DNA of 60,668 bases from Mageeibacillus sp. UBA1243 (GCA_002308595.1 DBWH01000064.1:1-60668); one strand, 5' to 3'; positions 1 to 60,668 are shown, counted from the first letter of the stretch. Notes: generated from the sequence alone by a model not told the origin. A program made the numbers and translations.

Positions 1-33
1 GAGTGTGCAGAAGTTCAGCACACATCTGACTTA

Positions 34-106
34 TGGGGACTACAGGGCTCGAACCTGTGACCCTCTACTTGTAAGGCAGATGCTCTCCCAGCTGAGCTAA
101 ACTCCC
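34..106 (-). tRNA. tRNA-Val (anticodon UAC)
   Basis: Reading the minus strand gives a full 73-nt cloverleaf. It has a D arm with GCTC/GAGC, an anticodon arm TCTGC-CTTACAA-GTAGA that places UAC at positions 34-36 (valine codon GUA), and a T arm ACAGG-TTCGAGC-CCTGT. No CCA is encoded after the discriminator A. The acceptor stem is weak: 5' GGGAGTT faces 3' AGTCCCC, giving an A-C mismatch at 4-69 and two G-U pairs, while the other arms are normal. A consensus promoter lies 43 nt upstream. A small GTGTGC/GCACAC hairpin at 3-23 follows the 3' end and may be the start of a terminator. Confidence 0.93.
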
Positions 107-148
107 AAGTCCACCTTTTCGAGGGAGTCCCTCGCGAGGTGCTTTGCA

Positions 149-177
149 AGTATACTACAAGGGAAAAATGTTGTCAA
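149..177 (-). promoter_or_regulatory. Consensus sigma-A promoter for tRNA-Val
   Basis: On the minus strand the -35 box is TTGACA (172-177) and the -10 box is TATACT (149-154), with a 17-nt spacer. This is one mismatch from the vegetative consensus. Transcription should begin near 142, leaving about 36 nt before the tRNA. That leader carries short GC hairpins (CCTCGCGAGG and GAGGGACTCCCTC). Confidence 0.85.
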
Positions 178-292
178 CACTTTTTTTAAATTTTTTCAAA
201 GACGTGAAGTGAAATTTTCAAAGAAAATCCGGCGTGTGAAACGGGCTGTGAAACGGGCGGAAATCTGAGGGGTGATTTTATAAAAGTGAGAC

Positions 293-1630
293 TTATTGGC
301 AGGTTGGCGCGGCGGCATTGGCGGTTTCGGAGGTGTCGGGCGCGTACATGTAATTGTTCCGGGAGAAGTTTTTCCAGTCGTTTACGTGGAGGCGGTGCAT
401 TTCTTCGGTGAGGAGGAGCATCTTGCCGACACAGGGGATTTTGGGGGTGAACTCGTAGAACTCGCCTTCGACGTAGAAGGCAAACTTTGCGGTGCTCGTC
501 ATTATCGGCAATGCGTAGACAACGCTGTACGGCAGGTCGACCGACCATTCTTCGCCGTGCCTGGTGCCCCGGTAGTGGACGCCTTCGTGGTCAACGGTGA
601 ATTCGCCCTCGCCGCAGGGTTCGGACGTGGCGTAGTTTTTAAGGTACCTGTCGTCGGGGATATCGCCAAGGATGCCCTTGGCGGTGTAGGAGTAGTCCTT
701 GTTGCTGCGAATCTCGCGGATGACGTGCTCGCGCTCCATGGCGACCCATTTTGAGGGCGATTCGGGAATGATGCAGCTGTCGTCAAGCGGAATCATCTCG
801 TATAAGTCATTCACGGTGAAGCCGTTGCCGCATTTGGAGCACCTGACCTCGTCGGGGGTGTTGATCATTTCGACCTCAGAGCCGCATTTGGGGCAGCGGT
901 AGCAGATGTCGGAGAGCCTCGTGCACATGCCAGTTTTGTGCTTCCACTTGATTTTTTGTTCCTTTGCCCATTCGTAGTCGTCAAAATGGAACGCCTCGTT
1001 GAGCCTGTCCGTGACCTCGTCGTCGCTCATGCGTTCAAGGTCCTCGGGGGTGAAAAGAAGCGAAAGTTCAGCCTCAACCCTTCCGTAGCGCTCGTCAAGA
1101 CAGACCTTTGTGCTTGTGAGGTAGCTGCCCTTCAGCTTGACGAAATAGACAGGGATGCGGAAGTGCTTGATGAAGCGCGCCGTGCCGGGCACAATTGGCT
1201 GGTTGGTTCCGTAGATTGAGCTCATGCCTTCGGGGGAGAAGGCCACGCAGCCGCCTTGGCGTATTATCGAATTCATGCCCCTGAGGCCTATCAGATCGTT
1301 TGTGTAGACCTTTTTGGGGATGATATTCATCATTTTAAACACCTTGTGGAGGTGGCCGCGGAAGAACTCGCTGTAGCCGGCAACGATATTGATCGGCCGC
1401 GGATAAGCCGCCTGAAGCACGAAAGCGTGGTCAAGCCTCGAGAGGTGGTTCCATACGAGGAAGCACGGGCCTTTGCAGTCTTTCAGGCTGTCTTTGACAA
1501 CCACGTGCGGCCGGTATTTTTTGGCGATAAAGCCGTTCATCAGGAAATGGTAGATCCAGTAGTAAAAGCGGTTCGGAACCTTGTACTTTCTGCCGGCAAG
1601 TTCATTTCTCAGCGAGCGTGTCTTCTGCAT
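293..1630 (-). CDS. PlsC-like 1-acylglycerol-3-phosphate acyltransferase with zinc ribbon
   Basis: 445 aa. Residues 20-200 form a PlsC-type acyltransferase domain with the catalytic NHxxxxD box (N61, H62, D67) and the FSPEG substrate box (E134-G135). Residues 246-267 hold a CPxCG...CxxCG zinc ribbon, followed by about 175 residues I do not recognise. Known PlsC proteins transfer an acyl group to lysophosphatidate at the inner membrane face. Classical bacterial PlsC is about 200-250 aa, so the zinc-ribbon half is an extension; it may bind a partner or set specificity. No clear membrane segment is visible beyond a weak one at 22-33. The ATG follows an AGAGGAC ribosome site. It lies 55 nt after the methyltransferase gene and may be the last gene of that run. 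Confidence 0.82.
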   Translation of the reverse strand: MQKTRSLRNELAGRKYKVPNRFYYWIYHFLMNGFIAKKYRPHVVVKDSLKDCKGPCFLVWNHLSRLDHAFVLQAAYPRPINIVAGYSEFFRGHLHKVFKMMNIIPKKVYTNDLIGLRGMNSIIRQGGCVAFSPEGMSSIYGTNQPIVPGTARFIKHFRIPVYFVKLKGSYLTSTKVCLDERYGRVEAELSLLFTPEDLERMSDDEVTDRLNEAFHFDDYEWAKEQKIKWKHKTGMCTRLSDICYRCPKCGSEVEMINTPDEVRCSKCGNGFTVNDLYEMIPLDDSCIIPESPSKWVAMEREHVIREIRSNKDYSYTAKGILGDIPDDRYLKNYATSEPCGEGEFTVDHEGVHYRGTRHGEEWSVDLPYSVVYALPIMTSTAKFAFYVEGEFYEFTPKIPCVGKMLLLTEEMHRLHVNDWKNFSRNNYMYAPDTSETANAAAPTCQ

Positions 1631-1685: not shown

Positions 1686-2540
1686 TTAATAACCTTTTTC
1701 TTTCAGCTTTGCCTTGATTGCTTTTACGTACCGCCAATCGCTTCCGCAGCAGCCGCCAATGTAAGTCGCGTACGGGAACGCAGGCGCAACCATCTCCGCG
1801 AACTCCTCGGGGCCTATTGCCGATGCCTCCCGGCCGCCGCCTTTTGATATCGGAAGACCCGCGTTGGGCTTGAAGAAAAGCGGCAGCGAGGTTTTCTCGG
1901 AAAACTCCTTGATTACGGGGATCGCGGCGTCCGGACCGAGCGAGCAGTTGAGACCGATTGAGGCTATTCCGAGCGGCTCAAGCGTCTTTACAACGTCCTC
2001 GACCGAGTTGCCGAACATGGTCTTGCCGACTTTTTCGAAAGACATGGAGCAGAACACGGGGGCGCCTTTTGTGACCGCCCTCTCCGCTGCCACGCGCATC
2101 ATACCGAGGTCGATGAAGGTCTCAAGGAAAATCGCGTCAGGCTTGTAAGGCATTGCCGCGTCAAAAATCTCTTCATATATATCGCCGCACTCGTCCTCTT
2201 CAAGGTCGCCGTACGGTTCGAGCATCTGCATGAGCGGTCCGCAGCTGAGCGTGATCTTAGCGTCCTTGCCCTCAGCCGTTTCGCGCGCAATCTTCATCGC
2301 GGATGCGACAACGTCGCGCACGTCATACTTTGAGCTTCTCTCAACAGCCGGTCTGTTGGCGCCGAAAGTGTTCGCCTGAACGTAGTCCGCGCCCGATTCG
2401 ATGTAGCGGTTCACGATTTCCGCGACAAACTCCGGATGCTCGATATTGTAACGCCAGACAGGCACCTTCTCCACGCCGTGGCTTGCGGCAATGTCCCAAA
2501 GGGTCGTGCCCACTGCTCCGTCAAGTATAATCTTTCCCAT
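1686..2540 (-). CDS. Homocysteine S-methyltransferase family protein (MetH N-domain/BHMT type)
   Basis: 284 aa, a single Pfam S-methyl_trans barrel starting with the typical DGAVGTT motif. The zinc-thiolate triad is present: C199 in GLNCS and C264-C265 in IGGCCGS. Family members transfer a methyl group from S-methylmethionine, betaine or a corrinoid donor to homocysteine. The protein matches the first domain of MetH alone, so it may work with a separate corrinoid protein; a candidate is encoded at 53923-54570. An AGGAGGGG ribosome site sits 3 nt before the ATG. Only 15 nt separate it from the upstream SGNH esterase gene. The methyl donor cannot be told from sequence. Confidence 0.88.
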   Translation of the reverse strand: MGKIILDGAVGTTLWDIAASHGVEKVPVWRYNIEHPEFVAEIVNRYIESGADYVQANTFGANRPAVERSSKYDVRDVVASAMKIARETAEGKDAKITLSCGPLMQMLEPYGDLEEDECGDIYEEIFDAAMPYKPDAIFLETFIDLGMMRVAAERAVTKGAPVFCSMSFEKVGKTMFGNSVEDVVKTLEPLGIASIGLNCSLGPDAAIPVIKEFSEKTSLPLFFKPNAGLPISKGGGREASAIGPEEFAEMVAPAFPYATYIGGCCGSDWRYVKAIKAKLKEKGY

Positions 2541-2555: not shown

Positions 2556-3620
2556 CTAAATGAATTTCTTTAATGTTTTTGTAATTTCACGGGCCATCAT
2601 GTAAAAGCCAAGGTCATTCGGATGCGTCATGTCGACAGTGCAGTTCTCCCTGTCGTGCTTTCCGAAAAGCTTTTTCCCTGAAATAAAACCAACGTTTTTG
2701 TCGCCGCTTCTTCTCGCCAATGCAACCGTCCGCTTTATCACCTTCATCCTCTCAGGGGACGAGGCGTCTGTGTCATAGTCGGGATTGGAGATGAAAACGA
2801 TTGGCGTGTTCGGGTGTTTTTCCCTGAAAATGCGATAAAGTCTGTAGTGCGTCTCTTTGAGGTGCTTCGCGTCCGGCGCGTTGTAATCGTAGTCGCACAC
2901 AAAAACCGACGGGTCAAGGCTCGCCAGGTACTCCGCAATCGCGACCTCGCCAAGGGCAGAGCCCGAGAAGCCAAGGTCAATTATGTCAACGTCAAGCCAC
3001 TTGGAGATGTAGGCTTCGTACATGTTGTCGGGCCTCGACGCGCACCCTCCGTGCGTGATGGACGAACCGTAAAAAAGGATCGGCTTGACGTCCCTGTACT
3101 TCGGCCCGTTTTCGACCGTCGCCTCCTCAGGCACTCCGATCGTCAGTTCTTTAAGGTCAGTGAAAAGAGGCAGGTAGAGCGTGTAGGAACGCATTTTGCC
3201 GCCAAGGAGAGGCTTTTCGGCATAGTACCCGTCCTCAGTGTGCGACTCCTTTAAATTGGCGTAGTGGTTCATCATGAACGCAGCCGCAAAGACGTGTTTG
3301 TCTCCGTCGTCCTCAACCAGGGTGAACCCGTGCGTGCCGGAGAAAGGCATGTGTGCCATCTGGGCCAGCGACGAGCACCTCATCGTTATCGAAAGCCTTG
3401 CCGCGTCTGTTCTGAACCTGATCCTGCCGCCCGCGGGGTGTTTGTTAAGCTCTGCTACCGACGGGCTGACAGCCGCGGCAACGTCCGCAGGCATTCTCAA
3501 AAAGCGGCCTTCTTTTTTGTCGTAGAAGACTCCGTAAAGGTCGAACCTGTCGTCGGGTATCGTGAAAAACTTTTGCCCTGCGGAAACGTCAAAGCCCGCG
3601 GGCGGTGTTGCGGTTTGCAT
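2556..3620 (-). CDS. SGNH/GDSL hydrolase, probable carbohydrate esterase
   Basis: 354 aa from the chosen ATG at 3620, which has AAGGAG 5 nt upstream; an in-frame start 102 nt earlier has no ribosome site. An N-terminal beta-sandwich (about 1-170) precedes an SGNH domain. S187 in FYGSSITHGG is the nucleophile and the late DMTHPND supplies Asp/His. No signal peptide is visible, so the enzyme is probably cytoplasmic and may deacetylate imported sugars. A second SGNH protein of similar two-domain plan lies at 19506. A TATAAT at 3679-3684 may be its -10 box, but no good -35 was found. The substrate is inferred only from the glycan-enzyme context. Confidence 0.82.
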   Translation of the reverse strand: MQTATPPAGFDVSAGQKFFTIPDDRFDLYGVFYDKKEGRFLRMPADVAAAVSPSVAELNKHPAGGRIRFRTDAARLSITMRCSSLAQMAHMPFSGTHGFTLVEDDGDKHVFAAAFMMNHYANLKESHTEDGYYAEKPLLGGKMRSYTLYLPLFTDLKELTIGVPEEATVENGPKYRDVKPILFYGSSITHGGCASRPDNMYEAYISKWLDVDIIDLGFSGSALGEVAIAEYLASLDPSVFVCDYDYNAPDAKHLKETHYRLYRIFREKHPNTPIVFISNPDYDTDASSPERMKVIKRTVALARRSGDKNVGFISGKKLFGKHDRENCTVDMTHPNDLGFYMMAREITKTLKKFI

Positions 3621-3765
3621 ATGAACTCCTTGCCGGGCGCACTGCGGGCGCCTTCCTGACAGCCTTCTTAACAGCTGTATTATAAGCGAAGAGTGAACAG
3701 CCTTGGCGGGCTGCGGGATCAATCCGCTTCCTTCCTGCCTCAGCCGTTCACTCCCGGTTTAAACG

Positions 3766-6700
3766 TCAGTTATATGCGGCTTCGAGTGCCTCGTAGAGCT
3801 GAACTCTTACAGCGTGGAGGTAATCGTCGTCGTTTGTGTACGTCAGAACGCTTGTGCAGACCTTTTTCAGCATATTGTCAAGAGCTGCCGAGCCGAGTTT
3901 GTTTTCAAGCATTGTGAGCATCTCGTAGTCCTCGATACCGTCTCTGATCGACTCGAGTCTGATTGTCGGAACAGGGTAGAGGCTGTGTTCGATGTGGCCG
4001 CTGTAGATGAGCATACCGTCGCCAGCCTGGTTGTTTTCCATAGGCTCGGACGTTCTCCAGTAGCTTGCCTTCCAGACGTTGACGGCCCAGTAGAGCATAC
4101 CTGTGACGCCAAGCTGTTTCATCTGCCAGAGGCTGACGATTGCTTCGGTGCCGTCGCTGTTGATCTGCCAGTTGACGTAAGGCTGCGTCGGGTTGATGCA
4201 GATGTAAGCCCAGAGCTCGCCGCCGTTCTTGACGCCCTCGCGGACTCTGTCAAGGTATACACCGTATTTCTTGTCCTGTGCAACGCTCTGGAGGAACGTT
4301 GCGCCGCCTCTTACGGAGAGTGCCCTTGGCGTGAACGCGTCAAGTTTCGGACAGTAGATGTTGGTGTATTTGAGGAGCATTCCGACGGAGTCCGTGTCAG
4401 ACTTGTTGATGTTGGTGACTGTTCCGTCGTTCATAAGCTCAAGGTCGCGCTCAAGCGGGATAACCATCCTGTAGTCGGGGTCGATCGATTTGATCTGGTT
4501 GGCGACCTGGATGAGCGTCTTGAAATGCTGCTCCGTGCGCGGCTCGTCGACTTCGCCGGGGTAGTAGATTATCTTGCTGAGCCACATCGGTTTCTCGGTG
4601 TATCCGTCGTTCTGGAGATCCGTCCATACGCTGTAGTCGCGGACCGACCACCTTGCCGTGTTGATGCGCTCGTCCTGCATATAGGCAATGCCTCTTCCGG
4701 ATGTCATGCCGTAAGGAAGATCGGTGACGTTGATGCGGTAGTCAAGGAAGAACTCGTAGTAGTTCTGGATGACCTTGTTCCACTCTTCACTGTCGTAACC
4801 GTCGCCGCCTGCCGGGTAGCCGCTTGAGATGTAGTTTGCCCAGAGAGCGAAAGCCGTTCTCAGAGTGGTGGCTGTCGGGAGCGAGAAGTTGTAAACCTTG
4901 ACAGCTATCGGCGATCTCTTGATTTCCTTGTCGGCATCAATGTCGTAAACGTGGATGACGGAGTTGTAGGTGCCCGCCGGTGTGTTCGATTTTGTAGTGA
5001 CGCGGATCATGAACGCCTGAACGTTGCCGGCTTTGACCGCGATCGGATCGCCGATGTGCAGAAGCGCGTCAGGTCTCATGACGCCAATGACGTTGTGGTA
5101 ATACTCGTAGGTGAGATCGGCGGTAAGCGTGTGGCCGTGGCCGTCGTCGAATTCGTCAATCGTAACCACGAGATTCATATCCTTTGAAGGTGCGATGAAG
5201 TACTGCGCGTTCTCACTCTCGTTCTTGGCCATGCTGATTGTGTAGCCGGAGACGTCTTTGGGTGTGAACTGATTCTGGATTGCCTTCTCCGTCGAGTGGT
5301 CGAACCAGACTTTCAGTGACGCGTCTTCGTCCTTGGCGGTAAGCTTGGACGATGCCATCGGGTCTTCGTAGTGAACGTTTGAGTTGTTGAGTTTGTATTC
5401 GGAAAGTCCGCAGGTTTCAAGCGCAACGTTGAGGTCGTCGGTGATAACGACATCGCCAATGTAAACCTTGCCCTGGTTTCTGGTGAGGTTTCCGAATCTG
5501 AGCATGATCTTGCTGATGCTCGCATAGTCGCTGTAGTGGCCGTCAAGGTCAAAGTAGACGCCCTGCCAGCCTGTCTCGTCAACATAGAGGTCAGCCTTGA
5601 TTTCGAAAGACATGACCTTGCCGGTGAGGTCTGAGTAGCCCGTGAGATTGACCGTGCAGGCTGCGTTGTCGACGGTCTTCATTCTGATGGCAATGTAGCG
5701 CTTCTGAGCCGGATATGCCTTCTGGATGGCAGCAAGCTCTCTGACGCCGATGTTAACCTTGACCGTTGCAGATGTGGGGTTGATTTCAACCGCATTGACT
5801 CCGCCGTTCTTTACAAGTGCGAGCGATGCGTTGTCGGCTGTGACGTAGGCTGCCGCGCTGCCGTTGGCAGGGAACGTCATCGTTGAAGTTGTGAGTCCCG
5901 AAGCCTCCGGATTCTCGGGGATGCCTGCATGTGCGTAAGCGTCCGCCTTCTTCTCAAAGAACGCGATCTCGGAGATGATCATGTAGGCGTCTTTCTTTAT
6001 GTAAAGGCTCGCCCAGTCGATGCGCATTGTCGTGAGTTTGTCCTTGGTTACAAAAGTCGTGCCTGTCATGTCAACGACAATGTACTGCCACTGACCGTTC
6101 TGGATGTAGGAAGACTTTCCGCTGTCGCCTGATGCGGGTTTCTGAGTGAAGAGTTCGAAATCGCCGTCGGTGAGTTCTGTCTTAACTTTGAAGACAACGT
6201 ATGATCCGTCTTTTCCTGTAAGAGCTGTCTTTCCGGTGAGGTTTGAGTACTTGGCAATGTCAAACACCGCGTTCGGGTCGCCCGTGCCTGAAGTGCTGTC
6301 GTAATCAAATCTCAGACCTTCGGAGGTCATTGAAACCTTGGACTGCTTGAGCGTTCCGATAACCGATTTAACCGAGTCATCCCATTTGTCAAAAATGTTT
6401 GCGGCTGTGGAAGTCGTCGGCGTGGGAGTCGGTGTAGGTGTAGGTGTGACTGTAGGCGTCGGGGTGGGTGTTGCGGTCGGCGTGGGAGTCGGCGTAGGTC
6501 TGTTCGTCGAAGTCGGTGACGCATTCGGTCCCTTTGAGGGGGTTGGTGTTTTCGATTCACCTGACGCCGAGGGAGCCGGGGTTGAGATTTCAGGCGTCGA
6601 AGACGAGCCTGACGTGATTACAGGCGTTTCGTCAGACGGCGTGTTTTCAGGAGTGTCCGTGGGTTCCTGTGTCACCTCGGGTGTGGATGTGTTTCCTGCG

Positions 6701-12367: not shown

Positions 12368-12423
12368 ACCTGCTCAAAAATCCGCCTCTTTCTGCCTGTT
12401 TTGTTCACGAGCCCGCCAATGCG

Positions 12424-42934: not shown

Positions 42935-42976
42935 AGAATTATTCCGCTGCATTGGCGGTAATTTCAGGAGGAAATA

Positions 42977-51229: not shown

Positions 51230-52753
51230 TCACTCAAAATACATGTTGTCAACAAATCTTGCGTTGAAATCCTTGGCGTCATTGAGTGAGAAGCTGTCAA
51301 TCTCTGACGCAAGCGCCTCGCAATCGCCAATGAATCCCCGGTCCTTTCCCGCCGCAATCGCCCCTTTCAAGGACGTGCTCGGAAAGACGGTCATTTTGTT
51401 TTCAAATTCAGGCGGGAAAATGCCCGTCGCAACGGCGTCGCGCTCCCTTATGTAGGAGCCGAGCCCTCCTGCGGTATATACGCGAAGAACTTCGTCCGCC
51501 CTGATGCCCGCCTTCTCGAGAAGGATCTCGATGCCCGTGCGGATGGCCGCCTTGGCGAGTTGGAATTCGCGAACGTCCTTTCTCGTAAGAGAGAGGCCCG
51601 TTTTTGTGAAAGCTTCCCTGCCGCCCGCAGAGAGGAGGCCGTCAATCTCATAGTCTTCGTCCATGAGACCGGTCTCGTCAATGATATCATCGCCCAAAAG
51701 CATTGAAATAAGGCTAATAAGGCCCGAGCCGCAGATTCCTACAGGCTCCCTGTCCCAGATTGTCGAAAGCTTTATGCCGCCGCTCGTTTTTTCGACCCCG
51801 GAGATCGCTCCCGGGATGCCGCCCGTGCCGCAGCTGATGTTGGCGCCTTCAAAACAGGGGCCCGCGGCCGATGAAGTCGCGTAGTACCTGCCGTTTGCCT
51901 TGAGCACCATCTCGCCGTTCGTTCCGAGGTCGATGAAAAAAGCCGGCCCGTCGTCGTTTTTTATAACAGCCGCCGCACCCGCAACAACGTCCGCGCCGAT
52001 AAAAGCGTCCGCCGACGGGAGCAGAGTCACATTTTCCGCGTCAATTCCAAGGTCCATGCCCGCAGTTCTCTTTGTCTCCGTAAACTCAGGTTTGAACGGG
52101 TAGGTGCCCATGCCGGCGGGGGAGACGCCAAGGAAAAGGTGCTGCATTGTTGTGTTGCCGGCAACATAAACCTCCCTGACATCAAGCTCCGGGAATGCCT
52201 CGCGGCTCTTCTTCAGCATGTCGTTTATGCATTGGCGGATGTCGCCCGTGAGCCTCTCAAGACCGCCGTCCGTTTTCGAAAAAGCGATCCTTGAGATTAC
52301 GTCCGCACCGTATTTTTTCTGGGGATTTAATACCGCAAAAGGCATCAGCACGCTGCCGCCGGTTTTTTCGCAGAGCGCCGCTTCAACCGTTGTCGTACCT
52401 ATGTCGACCGCAAGAAAAGCCTCGCCGAAGCCAAGGCCTGCATTGTCATTTTTTCCCTTCTTTTCGGCATTTGTAAGTATCTGAGAGTTTCCGAGTATCA
52501 TCCTGGAAGGAAGCTTTACGGACACCATGCCGGAAGTCACTTCCTCGCGGCAGAGCCTCAAAACCTTCTCGCTGCCGTCGGCAAAAACAACGGCCGCCTC
52601 GCACTTGCCGCAGCGCCCGTTTCCGCCGCACGGAAGATCGATGTCAACGCCCGAAAGTCTCAGCGCCTCGGCGACCGTCACGCCCTCATATTTTGCGGAA
52701 AGGCTTACGCAAAGCACGTCTTCCGCCCTTTTGTCAGACGAATCACCAGCCAA
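51230..52753 (-). CDS. Reductive activator of corrinoid proteins (RACo/DUF4445, ASKHA fold)
   Basis: 507 aa from TTG at 52753, with GAGGAG 10 nt upstream and an 11-nt overlap with the UroD gene. The [2Fe-2S] domain has C42-x5-C48-x2-C51...C68. An ASKHA ATPase fold with DIGTTT and IDLGTNGE follows, ending in DUF4445. It reduces cob(II)amide back to the active Co(I) state using ATP. It sits with its likely client corrinoid protein. Confidence 0.93.
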   Translation of the reverse strand: MAGDSSDKRAEDVLCVSLSAKYEGVTVAEALRLSGVDIDLPCGGNGRCGKCEAAVVFADGSEKVLRLCREEVTSGMVSVKLPSRMILGNSQILTNAEKKGKNDNAGLGFGEAFLAVDIGTTTVEAALCEKTGGSVLMPFAVLNPQKKYGADVISRIAFSKTDGGLERLTGDIRQCINDMLKKSREAFPELDVREVYVAGNTTMQHLFLGVSPAGMGTYPFKPEFTETKRTAGMDLGIDAENVTLLPSADAFIGADVVAGAAAVIKNDDGPAFFIDLGTNGEMVLKANGRYYATSSAAGPCFEGANISCGTGGIPGAISGVEKTSGGIKLSTIWDREPVGICGSGLISLISMLLGDDIIDETGLMDEDYEIDGLLSAGGREAFTKTGLSLTRKDVREFQLAKAAIRTGIEILLEKAGIRADEVLRVYTAGGLGSYIRERDAVATGIFPPEFENKMTVFPSTSLKGAIAAGKDRGFIGDCEALASEIDSFSLNDAKDFNARFVDNMYFE

Positions 52754-53870
52754 TTTTCTTGATCTCCTCGCAGTAGTAAACCACAAGTTCGAACTTGCTC
52801 CCCGGCATGAGTCTGTGGTCCGGGCACGGAATGAAACCGCCAAGCGACGCGAGCCTCTTCATGCGCTCAAGCTCCGCGTCAACCGCCTTTTTGTCCTTGC
52901 GGAGAGCCGTCTTGTCCATACCGCCGACGCCGAGCACCGCGTTTCCGAAGCGCTTCCTCGCCTTCTCAAACTGGTCGCCCCACGTTCCGACCTCAATCGG
53001 GAACATCACGTTGACCCCGTTTTCGACCCAGACGGGCAGCAGCTTCTCGACAACGCCGTCGCAGTCGAGCGAAATAATATCAATACCGTGCCTGTGGCAG
53101 AGCTCCGTGCGCTTTTTGTAGTGCTTTGCGCAGAGTTCTTCGAAAAGCGTTGGCGACAGCAGAGGCCCGCCGTTGAAGCAGATGTCCTCCCAGTAGTGCG
53201 CGTAGTCGAATTTTGCGCCTGTCTCGAGAACCGCCTTGGCGACTTCGTACTGCATCTCCGCGAAAGTATCGACAATATCGCCAAAGAGCTCCTCGTCATC
53301 GTCGTACATCAGGTAGCTCATGCCCATAACGGAGGTCATGTCCCTGATGCTGCCCATGACAGAGCCAAGGTGAATGCCGAGCGGCACGTCTGTTTTCCCG
53401 TAAATATCGTTGTTGAACCGCCCGAAAAAGTCAAAATCGACCCTTTTTTCGATGTTCAGCGCCATTTTGGGCTTAAAAAGCGTCTCAAAGGCCTCGCGGT
53501 CCTTGAGAAGGTAGTCGTACTCGGCAGGGATTGAAATGACGCCCGGGTGGATCTTTTCGATGATGCCGTTGCCGTTTTGGACAGCCTGCGAGCCGTCCGG
53601 AAACTCCTTCACGACCTTGTGTTCAAAACGCGGCATGAGACCGTTGTTTCCGCAGAAGACGTGCTGCCAGTTGTAGTCCCAGCCGATTATCCTGTCAAGC
53701 TCGTTGTCCTTCGGGCCGCCGTCGCAGTAACCGTCAAGAATGGACCTGTCAATATACCCCTGCCCGGCCCACTCCTCGAGAAGCTCCGTCCAGTAACCAA
53801 AATGCACCGCCGGCATCCTGTCGGCGGCTTTGAAGTGCAGAATATTGCTTGTCCTTTCACGGTTTGTCAT
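52743..53870 (-). CDS. UroD-family corrinoid methyltransferase (MtaA/MtvB-like)
   Basis: 375 aa from ATG at 53870 (GGGAGG 5 nt upstream). The URO-D barrel lacks haem-type context and ends with FIPCPDHRLMPG, where Cys and His can bind zinc as in corrinoid-dependent relatives. In the family, MtaA-type members move methyl from a corrinoid to a thiol and MtvB-type members load methyl from O-methyl aromatics onto a corrinoid. Neighbours make this function firm in outline; the substrate is unknown. Confidence 0.88.
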   Translation of the reverse strand: MTNRERTSNILHFKAADRMPAVHFGYWTELLEEWAGQGYIDRSILDGYCDGGPKDNELDRIIGWDYNWQHVFCGNNGLMPRFEHKVVKEFPDGSQAVQNGNGIIEKIHPGVISIPAEYDYLLKDREAFETLFKPKMALNIEKRVDFDFFGRFNNDIYGKTDVPLGIHLGSVMGSIRDMTSVMGMSYLMYDDDEELFGDIVDTFAEMQYEVAKAVLETGAKFDYAHYWEDICFNGGPLLSPTLFEELCAKHYKKRTELCHRHGIDIISLDCDGVVEKLLPVWVENGVNVMFPIEVGTWGDQFEKARKRFGNAVLGVGGMDKTALRKDKKAVDAELERMKRLASLGGFIPCPDHRLMPGSKFELVVYYCEEIKKIGW

Positions 53871-53922: not shown

Positions 53923-54570
53923 TTATTTTCCGTTCATCTCTTTCAGAGCTTTCTCGGCAACCTCGGCAGCGCTTGCGGCGTCGAGAGTGTAGTAGTCTGC
54001 GCCGATTTCATTGGCGAATTCCTGCGTTACGGGAGCTCCGCCGACCATGACCCTGACCTTGTCCCTGATGCCTGCCGCGACGAGCGCGTCAATGACGTCC
54101 TTCTGAGCGTTCATTGTGGTTGTGAGAAGAGCCGACAGGCACACGATCTGCGCCCCGTTTTCCTTCACCGCCTCAACGACCCTCTCAGCGTCAACGTCCG
54201 TTCCGAGGTCTATGCACTCAATGCCTCTGCCCTCGATCATCATCTTGACGAGGTTCTTTCCGATGTCGTGCATGTCGCCCTTAACGGTGCAGATGACTGC
54301 CCTGCCGAGCGGTTCCGCGCCTGCCTTTGCAAGAGCGGGCTTCAGCACCTGCATACCCTTGTTCATTGCCCTTGCCGCGACGAGCACCTCGGGCACAAAC
54401 ACTTCGTTCAGCTTAAACTTCTCGCCGATGACGTTCATACCCGCCATCAGACCCTTGGTGAGCAGATCCTCAGGATTCTCGCCCTCCGCAAGCGCCTGCT
54501 CGACGAGAGCCACAACTTCTTTTGCCTTGCCGCCAATGACTTTCTCGGCAATGTCTTCACAGTACCCCAT
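53923..54570 (-). CDS. Corrinoid (B12-binding) protein, MtaC/MtvC type
   Basis: 215 aa. A helical cap (1-85) precedes the cobalamin Rossmann domain with D99-x-H101-x-x-G104 (His that ligates cobalt from below), the SALLTTT loop and VGGAPV. It shuttles a methyl group between two methyltransferases. UroD and RACo genes follow directly. Confidence 0.94.
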   Translation of the reverse strand: MGYCEDIAEKVIGGKAKEVVALVEQALAEGENPEDLLTKGLMAGMNVIGEKFKLNEVFVPEVLVAARAMNKGMQVLKPALAKAGAEPLGRAVICTVKGDMHDIGKNLVKMMIEGRGIECIDLGTDVDAERVVEAVKENGAQIVCLSALLTTTMNAQKDVIDALVAAGIRDKVRVMVGGAPVTQEFANEIGADYYTLDAASAAEVAEKALKEMNGK

Positions 54571-54923: not shown

Positions 54924-55781
54924 TCAACCTCTTTTTATTACGCCCTTTTGCCTCAGAGCGCTCTCGTAACAAACCAATGTGGCCGCAAATCCCACGTTCA
55001 GCGACTCTACGCTTCCGAGCATCGGTATGATGACAGTGCTCGAAAACTTCTTCTCACGCCAAACAGGCGAAATGCCCTTGTACTCGTTTCCGCAGACGAC
55101 CGCGATCCTGCCGCTGTAGTCCTCGTCAAAATAGTTCTTCGTCGCAGTAAGATCGGTCACAACCGCCTTAAAGCCGTTCTTCTCAAGCCAGTCGAAAAGC
55201 TCGTCCTCGTCAGCCTCCACAAAAGGAACCGTAAAAGCGGCTCCGAGACTTGACCTTATAAGCCTCGGGTGCGTGATCTTGCAGCGCCTGTTCACGTAAA
55301 CCGCAAACTCGCCTCCGCACGCATCGACCGTCCTCAGAATGGCACCGATATTTCCCGGCTGCTCCTGCCCGTCAAGCACCACGCCCGTCATGTTCGCGTT
55401 AAGCTTAATGTCCGAAAGCTTCCGTTTGGGCATCACCGCGATGATAAAGCAGTAATCCGCGCCGTCCCTGTCGCTTATCCTTGCGCAGGTCTTTTCGGAG
55501 ATTGCGTAAGTCTCCTTGGCGGCTTTCATGACGCCAATGAGCTTCTCCGCGTTCTCCTGCGCTTCTCTCCTCTCGGGGCACACGAAGAACATCCTGATTT
55601 CGATGTTGTTCTTAAGAAGCATCCCGCAGGCCCAGTCGCCCTCGCATATAAAAAGCCTGTCCGCATCGGGGTCGCCTGCATATTCTTCCGGCAGTTTCTT
55701 CGATGTCGCGAGCCTGTTGGCAAGTTTCACCTGCGGGCTTCCCGCCCCGACAGCCGTTAGGTTTCTGAAAATGTCACCCAT
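54924..55781 (-). CDS. SpoU/TrmH-family RNA 2'-O-methyltransferase (copy 1)
   Basis: 285 aa. N-terminal substrate-binding domain, then the knot: QEQPGNIGAILRT (motif 1), CGNEYKGIS (motif 2) and IPMLGSVESLNV (motif 3). It methylates rRNA or tRNA 2'-OH with SAM. Middle gene of a three-gene run with copy 2 and yhbY. Confidence 0.92.
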   Translation of the reverse strand: MGDIFRNLTAVGAGSPQVKLANRLATSKKLPEEYAGDPDADRLFICEGDWACGMLLKNNIEIRMFFVCPERREAQENAEKLIGVMKAAKETYAISEKTCARISDRDGADYCFIIAVMPKRKLSDIKLNANMTGVVLDGQEQPGNIGAILRTVDACGGEFAVYVNRRCKITHPRLIRSSLGAAFTVPFVEADEDELFDWLEKNGFKAVVTDLTATKNYFDEDYSGRIAVVCGNEYKGISPVWREKKFSSTVIIPMLGSVESLNVGFAATLVCYESALRQKGVIKRG

Positions 55782-55796: not shown

Positions 55797-56585
55797 TCAG
55801 TAATTGTTTTTTCTCAGCCTGTAGATGCCTATCGCCGCGGCAACCGGCAGGTTCAGCGAGTCAACCGTGTCTGCGTGCATGATTCTCACAGGCCTTCCGA
55901 CGCCAAGGAAACTCTCCGGGAGCCCCGCGGCCTCATTGCCGAGTATCAGCGTCGCAGCCTTTCCGGACCCGAAGTCAACCTCCTCAATCGGCCTGCCGTC
56001 AAGCATAAACGGGAAAAAATCTCTTCCGCATTCATCCCCGCCGCTCTTCTCAAGCTGTTTTAAGTAATCTTCAAAGCTTTCGTATTGGCTTATTCTCAGT
56101 CTGAACACAGCCCCCATCGACGCGCGCACGGTCTTCGGGTTGTAAACGTCGCAGCACGGCGTTATAAGGGCAAGGTCAAACATCTCAAACGCAGCCATCG
56201 TCCTCATGATCGTCCCGAGGTTTCCCATGTCGCTCGGATTCACGAGTACAACGTGGTTCCGGTTCCTCTCAGGGCTCTCAAAGCTCTTCATGAAAACACC
56301 CGCCGCGTACACGTTCTCCTTGGGGTAGATGCGCGCCATCGCCTTGTCGTCAGTCACAAAGGGCACGCCAAGGTCATCCGCTATGCTCCTGAGCTTCACA
56401 ACGCCCGCGTTCTCAAGCGAGTTTTTGGTGACAATGATCTTTTTAAGAAGCTCCGGCTTGTTCATCGCAAGCTCGCAGGTCGGAAACACTCCGCACGAAT
56501 ATGAGTGCGCAAAGTCCCTCTTGTAGGGCTTTATCTCAATCTCGCCGCCGTCCCTGTTCGTTTTGGGCTGAATCTTTTCCGTCAT
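55797..56585 (-). CDS. SpoU/TrmH-family RNA 2'-O-methyltransferase (copy 2)
   Basis: 262 aa from ATG at 56585; ribosome site weak. Motif 1 is NPSDMGNLGTIMRT, motif 2 LGNEAAGLP and motif 3 ADTVDSLNLPVAAAI, all conserved. It differs throughout from copy 1, so it is an older paralogue with its own target. First gene of the run. Confidence 0.9.
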   Translation of the reverse strand: MTEKIQPKTNRDGGEIEIKPYKRDFAHSYSCGVFPTCELAMNKPELLKKIIVTKNSLENAGVVKLRSIADDLGVPFVTDDKAMARIYPKENVYAAGVFMKSFESPERNRNHVVLVNPSDMGNLGTIMRTMAAFEMFDLALITPCCDVYNPKTVRASMGAVFRLRISQYESFEDYLKQLEKSGGDECGRDFFPFMLDGRPIEEVDFGSGKAATLILGNEAAGLPESFLGVGRPVRIMHADTVDSLNLPVAAAIGIYRLRKNNY

Positions 56586-57362: not shown

Positions 57363-58463
57363 TTAAGGAAACTTTGGCAAACCGCCAATCTCTCCCCCGC
57401 AGTAAACCTCGTCCCCGTCGTAGAAAACCACGAACTGGCCGGGGGCGGCGGCTCTTATCGGAGTGTCAAAGCGGGCTGTGACGGTCCCGGTCGATTCATC
57501 GTACTCCAGCGAGCCCGGTACAGACTTCTGGCCGGACCTTGTTTTGATCTGAAGACCGGTCTTTGACATTGGCGGTGTCTCTCCCTTCCGGAGCCAGGGG
57601 AAGTTCGGGTTTATGACCGTGAGCGAGCTTGAGTAGAGAAGCTCGTCGGGGCCCATTATGACCGCACCGTCTTCGGGACGTTTTGCGATGACATACATAG
57701 GGTCCTCGCCAAGGGTCATGCCGACGCCCTTCCGCTGCCCGATCGTAAAGCGCTCCATGCCTCCGTGAGTTCCGAGGACTTTTCCGTTTACGTCAATAAA
57801 ACTGCCGGGGCGGCGGGCTTTGCCGGTTTCTGCGTACCAGTCCTCAATGAAGCCGATATAGTTTCCGTCAGGGACGAAGCAGATGTCCTGACTGTCGCGC
57901 TCCTCAGCGTTTTCAACGCCCGATAGCCTTGCGAGCTCGCGCACGTCGTCCTTTGACTCCACGCCGTCAAGCGGAAAAATGACCTTTTCCATGATCTCAG
58001 GCGTCAGGCCGTAGAGGAAGTAGGACTGGTCCTTTTTGACATTGGCGGCTTTTTTGAGCCTCGGATTTCCGTCCGCGTCCCTTTCGATTTTTGCGTAGTG
58101 ACCCGTTGCGATGAAGTCAAAGCCGAGGGACATCGCCTTGTCAAGAAACAGGCCGAATTTGAGGGTCTGATTGCAGATTACACACGGGTTGGGCGTGCGG
58201 CCGTTTTCGTAGGACTCGCAGAAGTACTTTTTAACGTTCTCGCGAAACTCCTTTTCGAAATCGAACACGTAAAAGTCGATGCCGAGCTTTTTTGCGGCAG
58301 CCTCTGCCCTTTTTATCTGCGCGTCGGCGTCAGGAAGCAGGCGCATGATTGCTCCCGAGACGTCGCAGCCCCTCTCTTTTAGGAGCCTCACCGCCACGGT
58401 GCTGTCAACGCCGCCGCTCATCGCAACAAGAACCTTTTTATTCTGCTTCGCTTCAACTGTCAT
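57363..58463 (-). CDS. mnmA: tRNA-specific 2-thiouridylase
   Basis: 366 aa, normal length. PP-loop SGGVDST (16-22) binds ATP; catalytic C97 (NPCVICN) and C195 (SQDICF) form the persulfide pair. It makes s2U34 in tRNA for Lys, Glu and Gln. Confidence 0.96.
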   Translation of the reverse strand: MTVEAKQNKKVLVAMSGGVDSTVAVRLLKERGCDVSGAIMRLLPDADAQIKRAEAAAKKLGIDFYVFDFEKEFRENVKKYFCESYENGRTPNPCVICNQTLKFGLFLDKAMSLGFDFIATGHYAKIERDADGNPRLKKAANVKKDQSYFLYGLTPEIMEKVIFPLDGVESKDDVRELARLSGVENAEERDSQDICFVPDGNYIGFIEDWYAETGKARRPGSFIDVNGKVLGTHGGMERFTIGQRKGVGMTLGEDPMYVIAKRPEDGAVIMGPDELLYSSSLTVINPNFPWLRKGETPPMSKTGLQIKTRSGQKSVPGSLEYDESTGTVTARFDTPIRAAAPGQFVVFYDGDEVYCGGEIGGLPKFP

Positions 58464-58474
58464 GGCTTTCGGAT

Positions 58475-58508
58475 TTTTAAAACAGGGCTCTTTTTTTACG
58501 AGAGCCCT
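58475..58508 (-). terminator. Terminator after gyrA
   Basis: AGGGCTC/GAGCCCT stem with an 11-nt loop, followed on the minus strand by GTTTTAAAAAT. A T tract also lies on the plus side. Confidence 0.7.
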
Positions 58509-58538
58509 TTTTGATTTTTGTCTAAATATAGGTTGTTA

Positions 58539-60668
58539 TCAGGCTTCGGGAGTCTCTTCGGGAGCGTCCTCTCCGGCGTCCTCTCCGGCTTCTGCTTCAG
58601 CTTCGCCGACGATCTCTTCGAGCTCGCCGTCCGCCTCGTCGGCCCCTTCCTCAACGTCGTCCTCGAACGTGCCCTCCTCGGCGTTCGGATCGGGCTCCGG
58701 CTTTACTGTCTCTTCGTCGAGCATTGCGACTGTGGTGAAGCTCACAACGGGGTTGTCCTCCGTAGCCTTCATGAGGATGACGCCGGACGCGACTCTTCCG
58801 GTCGTGCTGATGTCCTTGACGTGTATCCTGATGACCGTGCCCGAGAGGTTGATGATCATGACGTCCTTGTCGTCGCCGGCAACAACCATGCCGCAGAGAG
58901 GTCCGGTTTTGTCCGTGACTCTGTAGCTGCGCATACCCTTGCCGCCGCGGCCGTGCTCGCTGAATTCCTCCGCAAGAGTGCGTTTTCCGTAGCCGTTTTC
59001 GGTGATGAAGAGCACCTTGTCGTCACTGTACTTGCAGACGTCAAATCCGATAACGCAGTCGTCTTCGCCGGGTCTGATTGCGATAACGCCGAACGAAGTT
59101 CTTCCGACCGACCTTGCGAGCTCACCGTCGAACTTGACCATGAAGCCCTTCTTTGTGCAGACGATGAATTTGTCGCCGTCGTTCGTGAGGATCGCATTGA
59201 CAAGTTCGTCGCCCTCCCTGAGTTCAACGGCTCTCAGACCGCCTTTTCTCAGATTCTTGTAGAGGTCGAGTCTTGACTTCTTTACGATACCGTTCTTGGT
59301 GCACATCGTGAGGTACTGGGCATCCTCGAACGTTCTGATCGGTATGATCGTCTGAACCTTTTCGGAAGGCTCGAGCGGGATGAGGTTGATGATGGGCATG
59401 CCCTTGGCGGTACGTCCGGCGTCGGGAATCTCGTAGCCTTTAATGCCGAACACGCGGCCGAAATTGGTTACAAAGAGTACGAGGTCGTGTGACGAGGTCA
59501 CTATGAGGTGCTGGATGAAGTCCTCCTCCTTGGTTGTGAGACCGAGAACACCCTTGCCGCCTCTGTTCTGCGCCTTGTATGTGTCCGAAGGCGTGCGCTT
59601 CACGTAGCCGTGCTGTGTGAGCGTGATGGCAATGTCCTTCTCCTCGATGAGATCCTCAAGCGGAATCTCGTTCTCCGCGTCGAGAATTCTTGTGCGCCTG
59701 TCGTCGCCGTATTTGTCTCTGATGGCAATGAGCTCCGCCTTGATAACTTCGTACATCTTCGCGTCATCCTCAAGGAGAGACGTGAAATATGCGATATCGG
59801 CAAGCTTCTGCTCATATTCTTCGAGGATTTTGTCTCTTTCGAGGCCTGTCAGTCTTCCGAGCCTGAGATCGACAATGTACTGCGCCTGTCTCTCGGTGAA
59901 GTCGAAGCGCTCCATGAGCTTTTCCTTGGCTTCCTGTTCAAGTCTCGAACTTCTGATGATCCTGATGACTTCCTCGATGTTGTCAATCGCCGTGAGAGTT
60001 CCTTCGAGCACGTGAGCTCTGTCTCTCGCCTTTTCGAGGTCGAACTGAGTCCTTCTCGTGACAACGTTCATCTGGTGGTCGATGTAGTATCTGAGCATCT
60101 CCTTCAGATTCAGCTGCTTAGGCTCATATTTTCCGTTGTCTCCCGGAACGAGGGCAACCATATTTGCGCAGTATGCTTCCTGGAGAGGAGTGTTTGCGTA
60201 GAGCTGGTTGAGAAGAACGTTCGCGTTAACGTGCTGCTTGAGCTCCATAACGATGCGGATGCCCTTCTTGCTGTACTCGTCTCTGAGGTCCGCGATGCCT
60301 TCAATTCTCTTTTCTTTGTGGAGATCGGCAATGCGCTTCACGAGCTGCGCGTTGTTAACTTTATAAGGGAGCTCCGTGACGACGATTCTCTGTCTGCCTC
60401 CGGGCATATCCTCGATGGTCGCTTCAGCTCTGACCACGATGCGGCCCTTTCCTGTGTGGTACGCCTCGCGGATGCCCTGCCTGCCGATGATGTTTGCGGC
60501 CGTAGGGAAGTCCGGGCCTTTAATGTACTGCATAAGCCCGTCAATCGTAATGTCGGGATCGTCTATCATCGCGACGACACCGTCAATGACCTCTCTCAGG
60601 TTGTGCGTGGGAATTTCCGTGGCCATACCGACCGCGATACCCGAGGAACCGTTTACAAGGAGGTTCGG
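58539..60668 (-). CDS. gyrA: DNA gyrase subunit A (5' part outside the window)
   Basis: The frame runs unbroken through the window edge, so only the C-terminal 709 residues are present. At the edge it reads PNLLVNGSSGIAVGMATEIP, which lies after the catalytic Tyr (not in view). The tower, coiled coil and six-blade C-terminal pinwheel follow, with the GyrA-box QNRGGKG that marks gyrase rather than topoisomerase IV ParC. The acidic tail of about 60 Glu/Asp/Ala-rich residues is common. An ATG at 60626 is internal, not the start. Confidence 0.95.
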   Translation of the reverse strand, partial: PNLLVNGSSGIAVGMATEIPTHNLREVIDGVVAMIDDPDITIDGLMQYIKGPDFPTAANIIGRQGIREAYHTGKGRIVVRAEATIEDMPGGRQRIVVTELPYKVNNAQLVKRIADLHKEKRIEGIADLRDEYSKKGIRIVMELKQHVNANVLLNQLYANTPLQEAYCANMVALVPGDNGKYEPKQLNLKEMLRYYIDHQMNVVTRRTQFDLEKARDRAHVLEGTLTAIDNIEEVIRIIRSSRLEQEAKEKLMERFDFTERQAQYIVDLRLGRLTGLERDKILEEYEQKLADIAYFTSLLEDDAKMYEVIKAELIAIRDKYGDDRRTRILDAENEIPLEDLIEEKDIAITLTQHGYVKRTPSDTYKAQNRGGKGVLGLTTKEEDFIQHLIVTSSHDLVLFVTNFGRVFGIKGYEIPDAGRTAKGMPIINLIPLEPSEKVQTIIPIRTFEDAQYLTMCTKNGIVKKSRLDLYKNLRKGGLRAVELREGDELVNAILTNDGDKFIVCTKKGFMVKFDGELARSVGRTSFGVIAIRPGEDDCVIGFDVCKYSDDKVLFITENGYGKRTLAEEFSEHGRGGKGMRSYRVTDKTGPLCGMVVAGDDKDVMIINLSGTVIRIHVKDISTTGRVASGVILMKATEDNPVVSFTTVAMLDEETVKPEPDPNAEEGTFEDDVEEGADEADGELEEIVGEAEAEAGEDAGEDAPEETPEA

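What the first reader, a model, noticed from the sequence alone, without database searches (positions are those of the whole stretch)
1..60668. Highly iterated non-palindromic octamer CATTGGCG / CGCCAATG across the window
Counting by eye I found about 62 copies (27 as CATTGGCG and 35 as CGCCAATG on the plus strand), near one per kb. About 2 are expected for an octamer of this composition in 60.7 kb. The heptamer ATTGGCG occurs about 79 times against about 8 expected. Copies lie on both strands without a marked skew. They occur in coding DNA in several frames (GCC-AAT-G giving Ala-Asn, ATT-GGC-G giving Ile-Gly, and x-TTG-GCG giving Leu-Ala with the otherwise rare TTG codon) and in intergenic DNA (12414, 19214, 19438, 40253, 42950, 45049). 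This points to selection or a mechanism acting on DNA, not on protein. Known parallels are DNA-uptake sequences of Neisseria and Pasteurellaceae and HIP1 of cyanobacteria; I know of none in Clostridia. Lack of strand skew argues against Chi or KOPS roles.
Basis: partly seen in the sequence, partly recalled or inferred. Interest (0 to 1): 0.93.

Follow-up and report, generated by a model that had tools for sequence, protein, structure and literature searches.

The report
Self-DNA uptake tag in Clostridia
A short DNA word, CATTGGCG with its twin CCTTGGCG, recurs 2,739 times in this Clostridia genome, in sampled genes about seven times more often than codon choice explains, and is likely a self-recognition tag for taking up kin DNA through pili, which would be the first such tag known in Gram-positive bacteria.

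Summary
The window holds 62 CATTGGCG plus 48 of a twin, CCTTGGCG. The genome holds 1,549 CATTGGCG against 56 of the reversed word, and 2,739 CMTTGGCG. In 334 kb of sampled genes, 531 copies stand against 77 after synonymous shuffling; intergenic density is equal. Motif codons are kept in the sister species more than the same codons elsewhere, so a process acts on DNA. There is no strand bias, but neighbouring copies alternate orientation (696 of 1,184 pairs; permutation mean 601, s.d. 17). Four of six genus members are enriched beyond codon usage; exactly those four carry a type IV pilus ATPase operon. ComEC and a ComEA-type domain are in all nine family members. One member adds a second word, CATTGGTT. 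My reading: an uptake sequence working like DUS/USS, evolved independently in Bacillota. Uptake, receptor and competence are inferred. Against: the pilus link rests on one clade, the nearest pilus relatives elsewhere lack the motif, and low-GC DNA is not specially motif-poor.

The parts
316..323 (+). CATTGGCG
664..671 (-). CCTTGGCG form
676..683 (+). CCTTGGCG form
1254..1261 (+). CCTTGGCG form
1754..1761 (-). CATTGGCG
2715..2722 (-). CATTGGCG
2948..2955 (-). CCTTGGCG form
3200..3207 (-). CCTTGGCG form
3701..3708 (+). CCTTGGCG form, intergenic
4324..4331 (+). CCTTGGCG form
5082..5089 (-). CATTGGCG
5331..5338 (+). CCTTGGCG form
5454..5461 (-). CATTGGCG
7091..7098 (-). CATTGGCG
8045..8052 (-). 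CCTTGGCG form
8378..8385 (+). CATTGGCG
9701..9708 (+). CCTTGGCG form
10199..10206 (-). CATTGGCG
11555..11562 (+). CCTTGGCG form
11649..11656 (-). CATTGGCG
12414..12421 (-). CATTGGCG, intergenic
13626..13633 (-). CATTGGCG
14289..14296 (-). CCTTGGCG form
14615..14622 (-). CCTTGGCG form
15322..15329 (+). CCTTGGCG form
15526..15533 (-). CATTGGCG
15596..15603 (-). CATTGGCG
15874..15881 (+). CATTGGCG
16156..16163 (-). CATTGGCG
17212..17219 (+). CATTGGCG
17470..17477 (-). CATTGGCG
18403..18410 (-). CATTGGCG
18581..18588 (-). CATTGGCG
18949..18956 (+). CATTGGCG
19070..19077 (-). CATTGGCG
19214..19221 (+). CATTGGCG, overlaps a start codon
19438..19445 (+). CATTGGCG, intergenic
21270..21277 (+). CCTTGGCG form
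21774..21781 (-). CATTGGCG
21795..21802 (+). CATTGGCG
21954..21961 (-). CATTGGCG
22266..22273 (-). CATTGGCG
23373..23380 (-). CATTGGCG
23524..23531 (+). CCTTGGCG form
24356..24363 (+). CATTGGCG
25272..25279 (+). CATTGGCG
25644..25651 (-). CCTTGGCG form
26349..26356 (+). CCTTGGCG form, intergenic, arm of an inverted pair
26385..26392 (-). CCTTGGCG form, intergenic, arm of an inverted pair
27989..27996 (+). CCTTGGCG form, intergenic, arm of an inverted pair
28025..28032 (-). CCTTGGCG form, intergenic, arm of an inverted pair
29687..29694 (+). CATTGGCG
29755..29762 (+). CCTTGGCG form
30056..30063 (-). CATTGGCG
30122..30129 (+). CATTGGCG
30218..30225 (+). CATTGGCG
30653..30660 (+). CATTGGCG
31424..31431 (-). 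CCTTGGCG form
31538..31545 (-). CCTTGGCG form
32369..32376 (-). CATTGGCG
32534..32541 (+). CATTGGCG
32678..32685 (+). CCTTGGCG form
34076..34083 (-). CCTTGGCG form
34340..34347 (-). CATTGGCG
34469..34476 (+). CCTTGGCG form
34544..34551 (-). CATTGGCG
35733..35740 (+). CCTTGGCG form
35998..36005 (-). CCTTGGCG form
36612..36619 (+). CATTGGCG
36846..36853 (+). CCTTGGCG form
37113..37120 (+). CATTGGCG
37689..37696 (-). CATTGGCG
37791..37798 (-). CCTTGGCG form
38253..38260 (-). CCTTGGCG form
38712..38719 (-). CATTGGCG
38952..38959 (+). CCTTGGCG form
39027..39034 (-). CCTTGGCG form
40135..40142 (-). CCTTGGCG form
40253..40260 (+). CATTGGCG, intergenic
40573..40580 (-). CCTTGGCG form
42058..42065 (+). 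CATTGGCG
42950..42957 (+). CATTGGCG, intergenic
45049..45056 (-). CATTGGCG, intergenic
45522..45529 (+). CCTTGGCG form
45795..45802 (+). CATTGGCG, half of a perfect 14-base palindrome
45801..45808 (-). CATTGGCG, half of a perfect 14-base palindrome
46866..46873 (+). CCTTGGCG form
47067..47074 (+). CATTGGCG
47304..47311 (-). CATTGGCG
48399..48406 (-). CATTGGCG
48600..48607 (-). CATTGGCG
50527..50534 (+). CATTGGCG
50828..50835 (-). CATTGGCG
51016..51023 (-). CCTTGGCG form
51271..51278 (+). CCTTGGCG form
51325..51332 (-). CATTGGCG
51550..51557 (+). CCTTGGCG form
52126..52133 (-). CCTTGGCG form
52230..52237 (+). CATTGGCG
53234..53241 (+). CCTTGGCG form
54009..54016 (+). CATTGGCG
54531..54538 (-). 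CATTGGCG
55514..55521 (+). CCTTGGCG form
55532..55539 (-). CATTGGCG
55901..55908 (-). CCTTGGCG form
56366..56373 (-). CCTTGGCG form
57567..57574 (+). CATTGGCG
57707..57714 (-). CCTTGGCG form
58040..58047 (+). CATTGGCG
59402..59409 (+). CCTTGGCG form

Best explanation
CATTGGCG/CCTTGGCG is repeated 2,739 times in this genome and is likely a DNA-uptake sequence, a tag that would let the cell's type IV pilus prefer DNA of its own kind. Shown: the repeat, its excess over codon usage, its equal density inside and outside genes of this genome, its conservation in a sister species, its restriction to one clade among the genomes searched, a second word (CATTGGTT) in one species of that clade, and a type IV pilus operon (PilB, PilC, prepilin peptidase, small pilin-like proteins; in G007 seen only in part) in exactly the motif-rich genomes of the genus. 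Inferred: a fast-evolving minor pilin binds the motif, PilB and PilT move the fibre, the ComEA-type protein and ComEC bring in one strand, and recombination with the preferentially imported DNA raises and maintains the motif (molecular drive). Further guess: recognition is polar, so a neighbour facing the other way adds something that a same-facing neighbour does not, which would explain the alternating orientation.
For: 1,549 CATTGGCG copies against 56 reversed. CDS excess over the synonymous shuffle in 4 of 4 PilB-bearing genus members: 531 vs 77.1, 166 vs 23.0, 68 vs 11.5, 36 vs 8.8; none in the two without PilB: G006 8 vs 8.3, G004 10 vs 15.9. Coding 1.59/kb, intergenic 1.66/kb in G000. 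Same flank preference in 93 intergenic and 528 coding copies. Codon-matched conservation in G008: ATT 24/29 vs 224/459, CTT 28/30 vs 466/753, GCC 59/70 vs 365/584, AAT 28/32 vs 128/214, GGC 64/71 vs 961/1301, all p < 0.003. Species-specific copies lie in more divergent DNA (flank divergence 0.214 vs 0.145), and 75 of 111 differ from the orthologous 8-mer at 2 or more places, against 54% of random changed 8-mers; similar findings are reported for Neisseria DUS (PMC2397512, passages). Dialect CATTGGTT: 853 vs 164 reversed in G005 only. ComEC and ComEA-type domain in 9 of 9. Small pilin-like proteins 58-68% identical between G000 and G008 while PilB is 98%; one of them has 10 hits in a word-based search of 5.8 billion proteins. 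No strand bias.
Against: The pilus-motif link is one phylogenetic event: the four genomes are one clade (100/100), so n = 1; and G006, one of the two without PilB, is only 79% complete. The nearest PilB outside the genus (69% identical; G079, G043) comes with no enriched motif (9 in 117 kb, 4 in 57 kb), and PilB is common in the class (128 of 291, own genome included) without this motif. A second T2SSE-family ATPase of about 400 residues is in all nine family members, so the motif-poor ones do not lack every pilus-type machine. PilT was not found in the window's own genome (77% complete). A pattern scan for typical major pilins hit in G005 but not in the G000, G008 and G007 stretches given to it, apart from one implausible frame in L188. 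Pfam support for the small pilins is below cut-off. Intergenic density is lower than coding in the other motif-rich samples: G008 1.04 vs 1.40, G005 0.37 vs 1.05, G007 0 (6.6 kb) vs 0.67 per kb; G005 also has a gene-orientation bias, 48 to 20. Enrichment over base composition is the same (about 20- to 24-fold) in low-GC and high-GC DNA, so the DUS rule 'absent from acquired DNA' was not reproduced. AAG codons in motifs are no better conserved (22/28 vs 816/1107). The structure model of one small pilin found no significant match in the PDB (best E 0.11). Close inverted pairs outside genes are not in excess. The alternation of orientation has no parallel in the passages that I read. I know of no experiment.
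Confidence: 0.6

Rival explanations
1. A HIP1-like genomic word kept by a DNA modification or repair system: a methylase or repair enzyme specific for the motif biases mutation or recombination towards it, and no uptake is involved.
For: Enrichment is uniform across GC classes and in genes and between them in G000, as a mutational process would give; in low-order Markov terms, words one base off at positions 3 and 5 are rare.
Against: N6_N4 methylase domain (PF01555) occurs in 0 of 4 motif-rich genomes and only in motif-poor G004 and G001. The word is not palindromic. Words one base off at positions 1, 2, 4 (C) and 6 exceed the Markov expectation; against codon shuffles only some of them do, such as TATTGGCG 55 vs 16 and CATTGCCG 95 vs 22, while CATCGGCG (50 vs 49) and CGTTGGCG (36 vs 34) do not. 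Partial over-representation fits gradual drive. Other methylase families were not tested.
Confidence: 0.14
2. A Chi-like or chromosome-organising signal read by AddAB, FtsK/SpoIIIE or a nucleoid protein.
For: Copies in 20 of 21 stretches of the first sample; pairs of opposite orientation are preferred.
Against: 308 forward to 327 reverse; correlation of strand bias with GC skew only 0.19. Enrichment is about seven-fold over codon usage. It is absent in sister species of the same genus, whereas such core machines are expected to be shared (from general knowledge; not tested).
Confidence: 0.08
3. An artefact of codon usage, dipeptide frequency or a mobile repeat.
For: Codon usage alone raises CATTGGCG in CDS to 33-65 copies per 334 kb, well above the base-composition value.
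Against: Observed 281; intergenic density equal in G000; flanks agree only over about 13 bases; gaps between copies follow a Poisson spread, CV 1.02.
Confidence: 0.02

Closest known systems
DNA uptake sequence (DUS) of Neisseriaceae, receptor ComP (PMC3630211, PMC2397512; passages seen)
   Same: Thousands of copies of a short non-palindromic word, no chromosome-wide orientation bias, dialects within one clade, more conserved than comparable sites, species-specific copies in more divergent DNA, type IV pilus present.
   Different: Unrelated sequence; Bacillota, not Proteobacteria; close inverted pairs outside genes not in excess; adjacent copies alternate orientation; no exclusion from low-GC DNA seen; receptor and uptake untested.
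Uptake signal sequence (USS) of Pasteurellaceae (PMC12616744 introduction read, PMC1939737 passages seen)
   Same: Short word in high copy number with a weaker downstream flank; some one-off words over-represented.
   Different: USS has AT-rich blocks about two helix turns downstream; here the flank ends about five bases after the octamer. Different sequence and phylum.
HIP1 of cyanobacteria (sequence and palindromy recalled; PMC6604393 seen as search listing with abstract start)
   Same: Highly iterated octamer in genes and between them.
   Different: HIP1 is palindromic and contains a methylated CGATCG; this word is asymmetric and the one methylase family tested is absent.
Chi sites and KOPS (recalled)
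   Same: Short asymmetric octamer, many copies.
   Different: Those are skewed with replication; this one is not.

Membership tests
DNA uptake sequence (DUS/USS) | Hundreds to thousands of copies genome-wide, far above chance | tested here: met
   1,549 CATTGGCG vs 56 reversed; 2,739 CMTTGGCG
DNA uptake sequence (DUS/USS) | Enrichment not explained by codons or dicodons | tested here: met
   281 vs 33.5-65.2; 531 vs 77.1
[quoted passage not shown]
   308 vs 327; chi-square 9.0 over 20 stretches
DNA uptake sequence (DUS/USS) | Copies more conserved than comparable sites between species | tested here: met
   Five of six codons tested, p < 0.003; AAG not
DNA uptake sequence (DUS/USS) | Dialects among related species that keep a core | tested here: met
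   CATTGGTT 853 vs 164 in G005, which also keeps CMTTGGCG; one such case; not codon-shuffled
DNA uptake sequence (DUS/USS) | Type IV pilus and DNA-import genes present | tested here: met
   PilB in 4 of 4 motif-rich genomes, 0 of 2 others in the genus; ComEC and ComEA-type domain in 9 of 9; PilT in 3 of the 4, not found in the window's incomplete genome
DNA uptake sequence (DUS/USS) | Rare in recently acquired DNA | tested here: inconclusive
   Ratio to base composition about 20-24 in all GC bins; acquired genes were not identified directly
DNA uptake sequence (DUS/USS) | Close inverted pairs serving as terminators | tested here: not met
   8 gaps under 20 bases vs 20.8 expected; non-coding pairs under 80 bases: 9 opposite, 11 same. 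A common side feature, not a requirement
DNA uptake sequence (DUS/USS) | Specific surface receptor (minor pilin) | not testable with these tools
   Candidates named; binding not tested
DNA uptake sequence (DUS/USS) | Motif raises uptake or transformation | not testable with these tools
   Needs an isolate
HIP1 | Palindromic octamer | tested here: not met
   CATTGGCG is asymmetric
HIP1 | Motif-linked methylase | tested here: inconclusive
   PF01555 not found in the motif-rich genomes; other families not tested
Chi/KOPS | Skew with replication direction | tested here: not met
   (G000)

The most novel reading that the evidence does not exclude
A third, independently evolved self-DNA recognition system, the first outside Proteobacteria: a clade of Clostridia tags its genome with CMTTGGCG, read by a fast-evolving minor pilin of a type IV pilus, with species dialects. 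Its tags are laid out with alternating polarity, so that both strands of nearly any fragment carry an entry signal.
Probability: 0.48. Interest if true: 0.94.

Novelty: new variant of a known kind. Interest (0 to 1): 0.86.

Why it matters
[quoted passage not shown] A third case in Gram-positive bacteria would show that the trait evolves repeatedly, would point to regular gene exchange in uncultured Clostridia, and would give closely related species with and without the system (four and two in one genus) to test how uptake sequences arise and decay. It could also give a handle for transforming these uncultured bacteria. The alternating orientation is a testable clue to how such tags are read.

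Tried and rejected
Considered and rejected: codon or dicodon artefact; dispersed mobile repeat (flanks agree over about 13 bases only); Chi/KOPS (no strand skew); terminator role (no excess of close inverted pairs outside genes). Not supported: a methylase of family PF01555. I first suspected that AATAAGTAA in G005 was a third dialect; it is a clustered intergenic repeat. I expected the closest pilus relatives (G079, G043) to share the motif; they do not, and other pilus-bearing genomes of the class that I sampled thinly (G185, G112, G189, G092, G223, G086; 4 to 38 kb each) showed nothing comparable. I expected low-GC islands to lack the motif beyond composition; they do not. The alternation of orientation could have come from dipeptide order; thinned potential dipeptides (0.48-0.50 opposite) and synonymous shuffles (0.465) do not show it, actual in-gene pairs do (346 of 584). 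Six sets of control words gave 0.32-0.55 opposite. A fold search with one small-pilin model gave no significant match. The structure alignment held 9 of 10 homologues found; the weakest (P0010) was left out. Literature: searches showed no report of this motif among the rows listed; the search for CATTGGCG inside words returned 562 papers, of which 15 were listed, so absence there is weak.

Full report
What was checked. The window holds 27 CATTGGCG and 35 CGCCAATG, and 80 copies of the heptamer. Expectation is about 2. The window is contig 44 of a 1.82-Mb, 77% complete assembly that holds 764 + 785 copies against 20 + 36 of the reversed word. A twin word, CCTTGGCG, has 48 copies in the window. 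Together, CMTTGGCG has 2,739 copies in the genome, about one per 0.66 kb.

Codons do not explain it. In 334 kb of called genes CATTGGCG occurs 281 times; shuffles that keep the protein and each gene's codons give 33.5, shuffles that keep neighbouring bases 52.1, and a dicodon model 65.2, maximum 82 in 20 runs. Some of those expectations are probably inflated by the motif itself. CMTTGGCG density in G000 is 1.59/kb in genes and 1.66/kb between them; in smaller samples of relatives the intergenic density is lower (G008 1.04 vs 1.40, G005 0.37 vs 1.05, G007 0 in 6.6 kb vs 0.67) (home-made gene caller). In G000 genes, 222 + 244 of 531 frame assignments use two readings, ATT/CTT-GGC and GCC-AAT/AAG; relative to gene direction the copies are 262 to 269 in G000 but 48 to 20 in G005. 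Flanks agree in 93 intergenic and 528 coding copies: the base after the octamer is almost never C (1 of 93 intergenic, 3% of coding), then Y, A/T, T, C.

Conservation. Against sister species G008, 78 reciprocal-best gene pairs with over 70% protein identity contain 154 motif copies of G000, of which 93 are intact in G008. At sites with the same amino acid, the codon is unchanged more often inside the motif than elsewhere for ATT (0.83 vs 0.49), CTT (0.93 vs 0.62), GGC (0.90 vs 0.74), GCC (0.84 vs 0.62) and AAT (0.88 vs 0.60), but not AAG (0.79 vs 0.74). Copies found in only one species lie in more divergent stretches (0.214 vs 0.145), which is partly expected because changed copies sample changed DNA; 75 of 111 differ at two or more places from the orthologous 8-mer, against 54% of random changed 8-mers. 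With the more distant G005 and G007, most copies sit at different places (22 of 77 and 5 of 33 shared; random 8-mers conserved 0.187 and 0.146), so copies turn over.

Taxonomic spread. In the genus: G000 2,739, G008 2,980, G005 1,785, G007 1,507, G006 554, G004 186. Relative to synonymous shuffles of sampled genes: 531 vs 77.1, 166 vs 23.0, 68 vs 11.5, 36 vs 8.8, 8 vs 8.3, 10 vs 15.9 in the same order; so G006, though above its reversed control (554 vs 165), is at codon level, and G004 is below. G001, of another genus, has 269 vs 69 reversed; it was not shuffle-tested. None of the other genomes among 31 of the order or 291 sampled from the class comes near; the highest densities there are about 0.25/kb against 1.5/kb. 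G005 carries a second word, CATTGGTT, 853 vs 164 reversed; the other eight family members have 16-62. Contig lengths identify G008 with record CACZNV01 (RUG12790) and G005 with JAFSVU01 (RGIG3519, goat rumen); that RUG stands for rumen genomes is recalled. The window's own source is not named.

Pilus. A PilB-type ATPase (about 460 bits) is found in G000, G008, G005 and G007 and in none of G004, G006, G001, G002, G003; G004 and G002 are 97% and 95% complete, G006 79%, G001 76%, G003 69%. A second, roughly 400-residue T2SSE-family protein is in all nine. In G000 (L003 = contig 1, 40001-55000, minus strand) the operon reads: three small proteins, a 402-residue protein without a Pfam match, prepilin peptidase, PilC, PilB, then a GAP1-N2 protein and uvrC. 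Two of the three small proteins have a pilin-type N-terminus by eye; Pfam gave one of them only sub-cut-off ComGE and N_methyl matches (E 0.011 and 0.03). The same order is seen in G008 and G005 (proteins matched to those of G000), and partly in G007. Typical major pilins were picked up next to PilT in G005 but not in the stretches of the other three genomes given to that scan, apart from one implausible frame in L188. PilT is in G005, G007 and G008, and in no other of 31 genomes of the order; it was not found in G000. ComEC and a ComEA-type HHH_3 domain occur in all nine. The polC tree puts the four pilus-bearing genomes in one clade, support 100/100, with G004 and G006 as sisters (90/94): one event, not four. 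The small pilin-like proteins evolve fastest of the operon: 58-68% between G000 and G008 and 31-37% between G000 and G005, against 98% and 87% for PilB. One of them found 10 relatives at E <= 0.001 in a word-based search of 5.8 billion proteins; the AlphaFold2 model of its G008 form (pLDDT 80) has a long N-terminal helix and a four-stranded sheet, as pilins have, but Foldseek found no significant PDB match (best E 0.11, a pseudopilus).

Orientation. Sampled copies show no strand bias (308 to 327) and little relation to GC skew (r = 0.19); gaps follow a Poisson spread. But neighbours tend to face opposite ways in G000: 378 of 641 pairs in the first sample. I then fetched new stretches as a replicate: 318 of 543 (p = 7.6e-5). 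Over all G000 data 696 of 1,184 are opposite, against 601 with s.d. 17 when orientations are permuted within stretches; under 400 bases 354 of 560, above 342 of 624. In G008 it is weaker: first set 128 of 240 (p = 0.33), new stretches 208 of 383 (p = 0.1) with 100 of 164 under 400 bases (p = 0.006), combined 331 of 612 (p = 0.048). G005 (47 of 101) and G007 (25 of 48) show none, with few pairs. Protein composition does not produce it. [quoted passage not shown] The polar-recognition idea is mine and untested.

Reading. The features match uptake sequences (PMC3630211, PMC2397512, PMC1939737, passages): many copies, no strand bias, dialects, conservation, permissive placement, pilus and import genes. 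Features not matched: no excess of inverted terminator pairs outside genes, no exclusion from low-GC DNA, alternation. A 2025 paper says that only Neisseriaceae and Pasteurellaceae are known to discriminate DNA in this way (PMC12616744, introduction read). I found no report of this motif among the rows listed by searches, in an open-access library only. The methylase rival was tested with one family only.

Noticed in passing
window 26349-26392 and 27989-28032; L238 from 17465: A near-identical intergenic element in which an inverted CCTTGGCG pair (36 bases apart) is flanked by an A-run on the plus strand, so it looks like a terminator hairpin read on the minus strand; no Rfam match in the window besides the tRNA.
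   Followed up: partly
window 45795-45808: Two overlapping copies in opposite orientation form a perfect 14-base palindrome.
   Followed up: no
L007:6942-11405 (+): A 1,487-residue open frame with a type IV pilin N-terminal motif (PF07963, over its cut-off) and a sub-cut-off Hint match, in a 4.7-kb stretch free of the motif; perhaps a giant pilus-tip protein.
   Followed up: no
L045-L047, L062, L182, L183 (G005): Clustered intergenic arrays with repeated TTACTTATT/AATAAGTAA units in the goat-rumen relative.
   Followed up: partly
L066 and L067: Two Clostridia records from water buffalo rumen share an enriched word around TATTGACCG (ATTGACCG 8 copies vs 0.6 expected in each); possibly another genomic word in another group.
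   Followed up: no
L031-L040 (G004): Moderate excess of CGGGAACG (76 vs 15) and CATTCCCG (39 vs 7) in the motif-poor sister species.
   Followed up: no
L189-L193 (G001): Moderate excess of CATTATCG (22 vs 1.8) and CATTGACG (23 vs 2.8) in another genus of the family in which no PilB was found.
   Followed up: no
L232 7345-11547: A cluster that looks like ribosomal protein genes (named by eye) is one of the longest motif-free stretches, as expected if the motif avoids codon-constrained genes.
   Followed up: no
window 3766-22104: Carbohydrate-active genes (GH123, alpha-amylase, GH1, and a sub-cut-off GH99 match) around a PolC-type DNA polymerase gene, in keeping with a polysaccharide degrader.
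   Followed up: no
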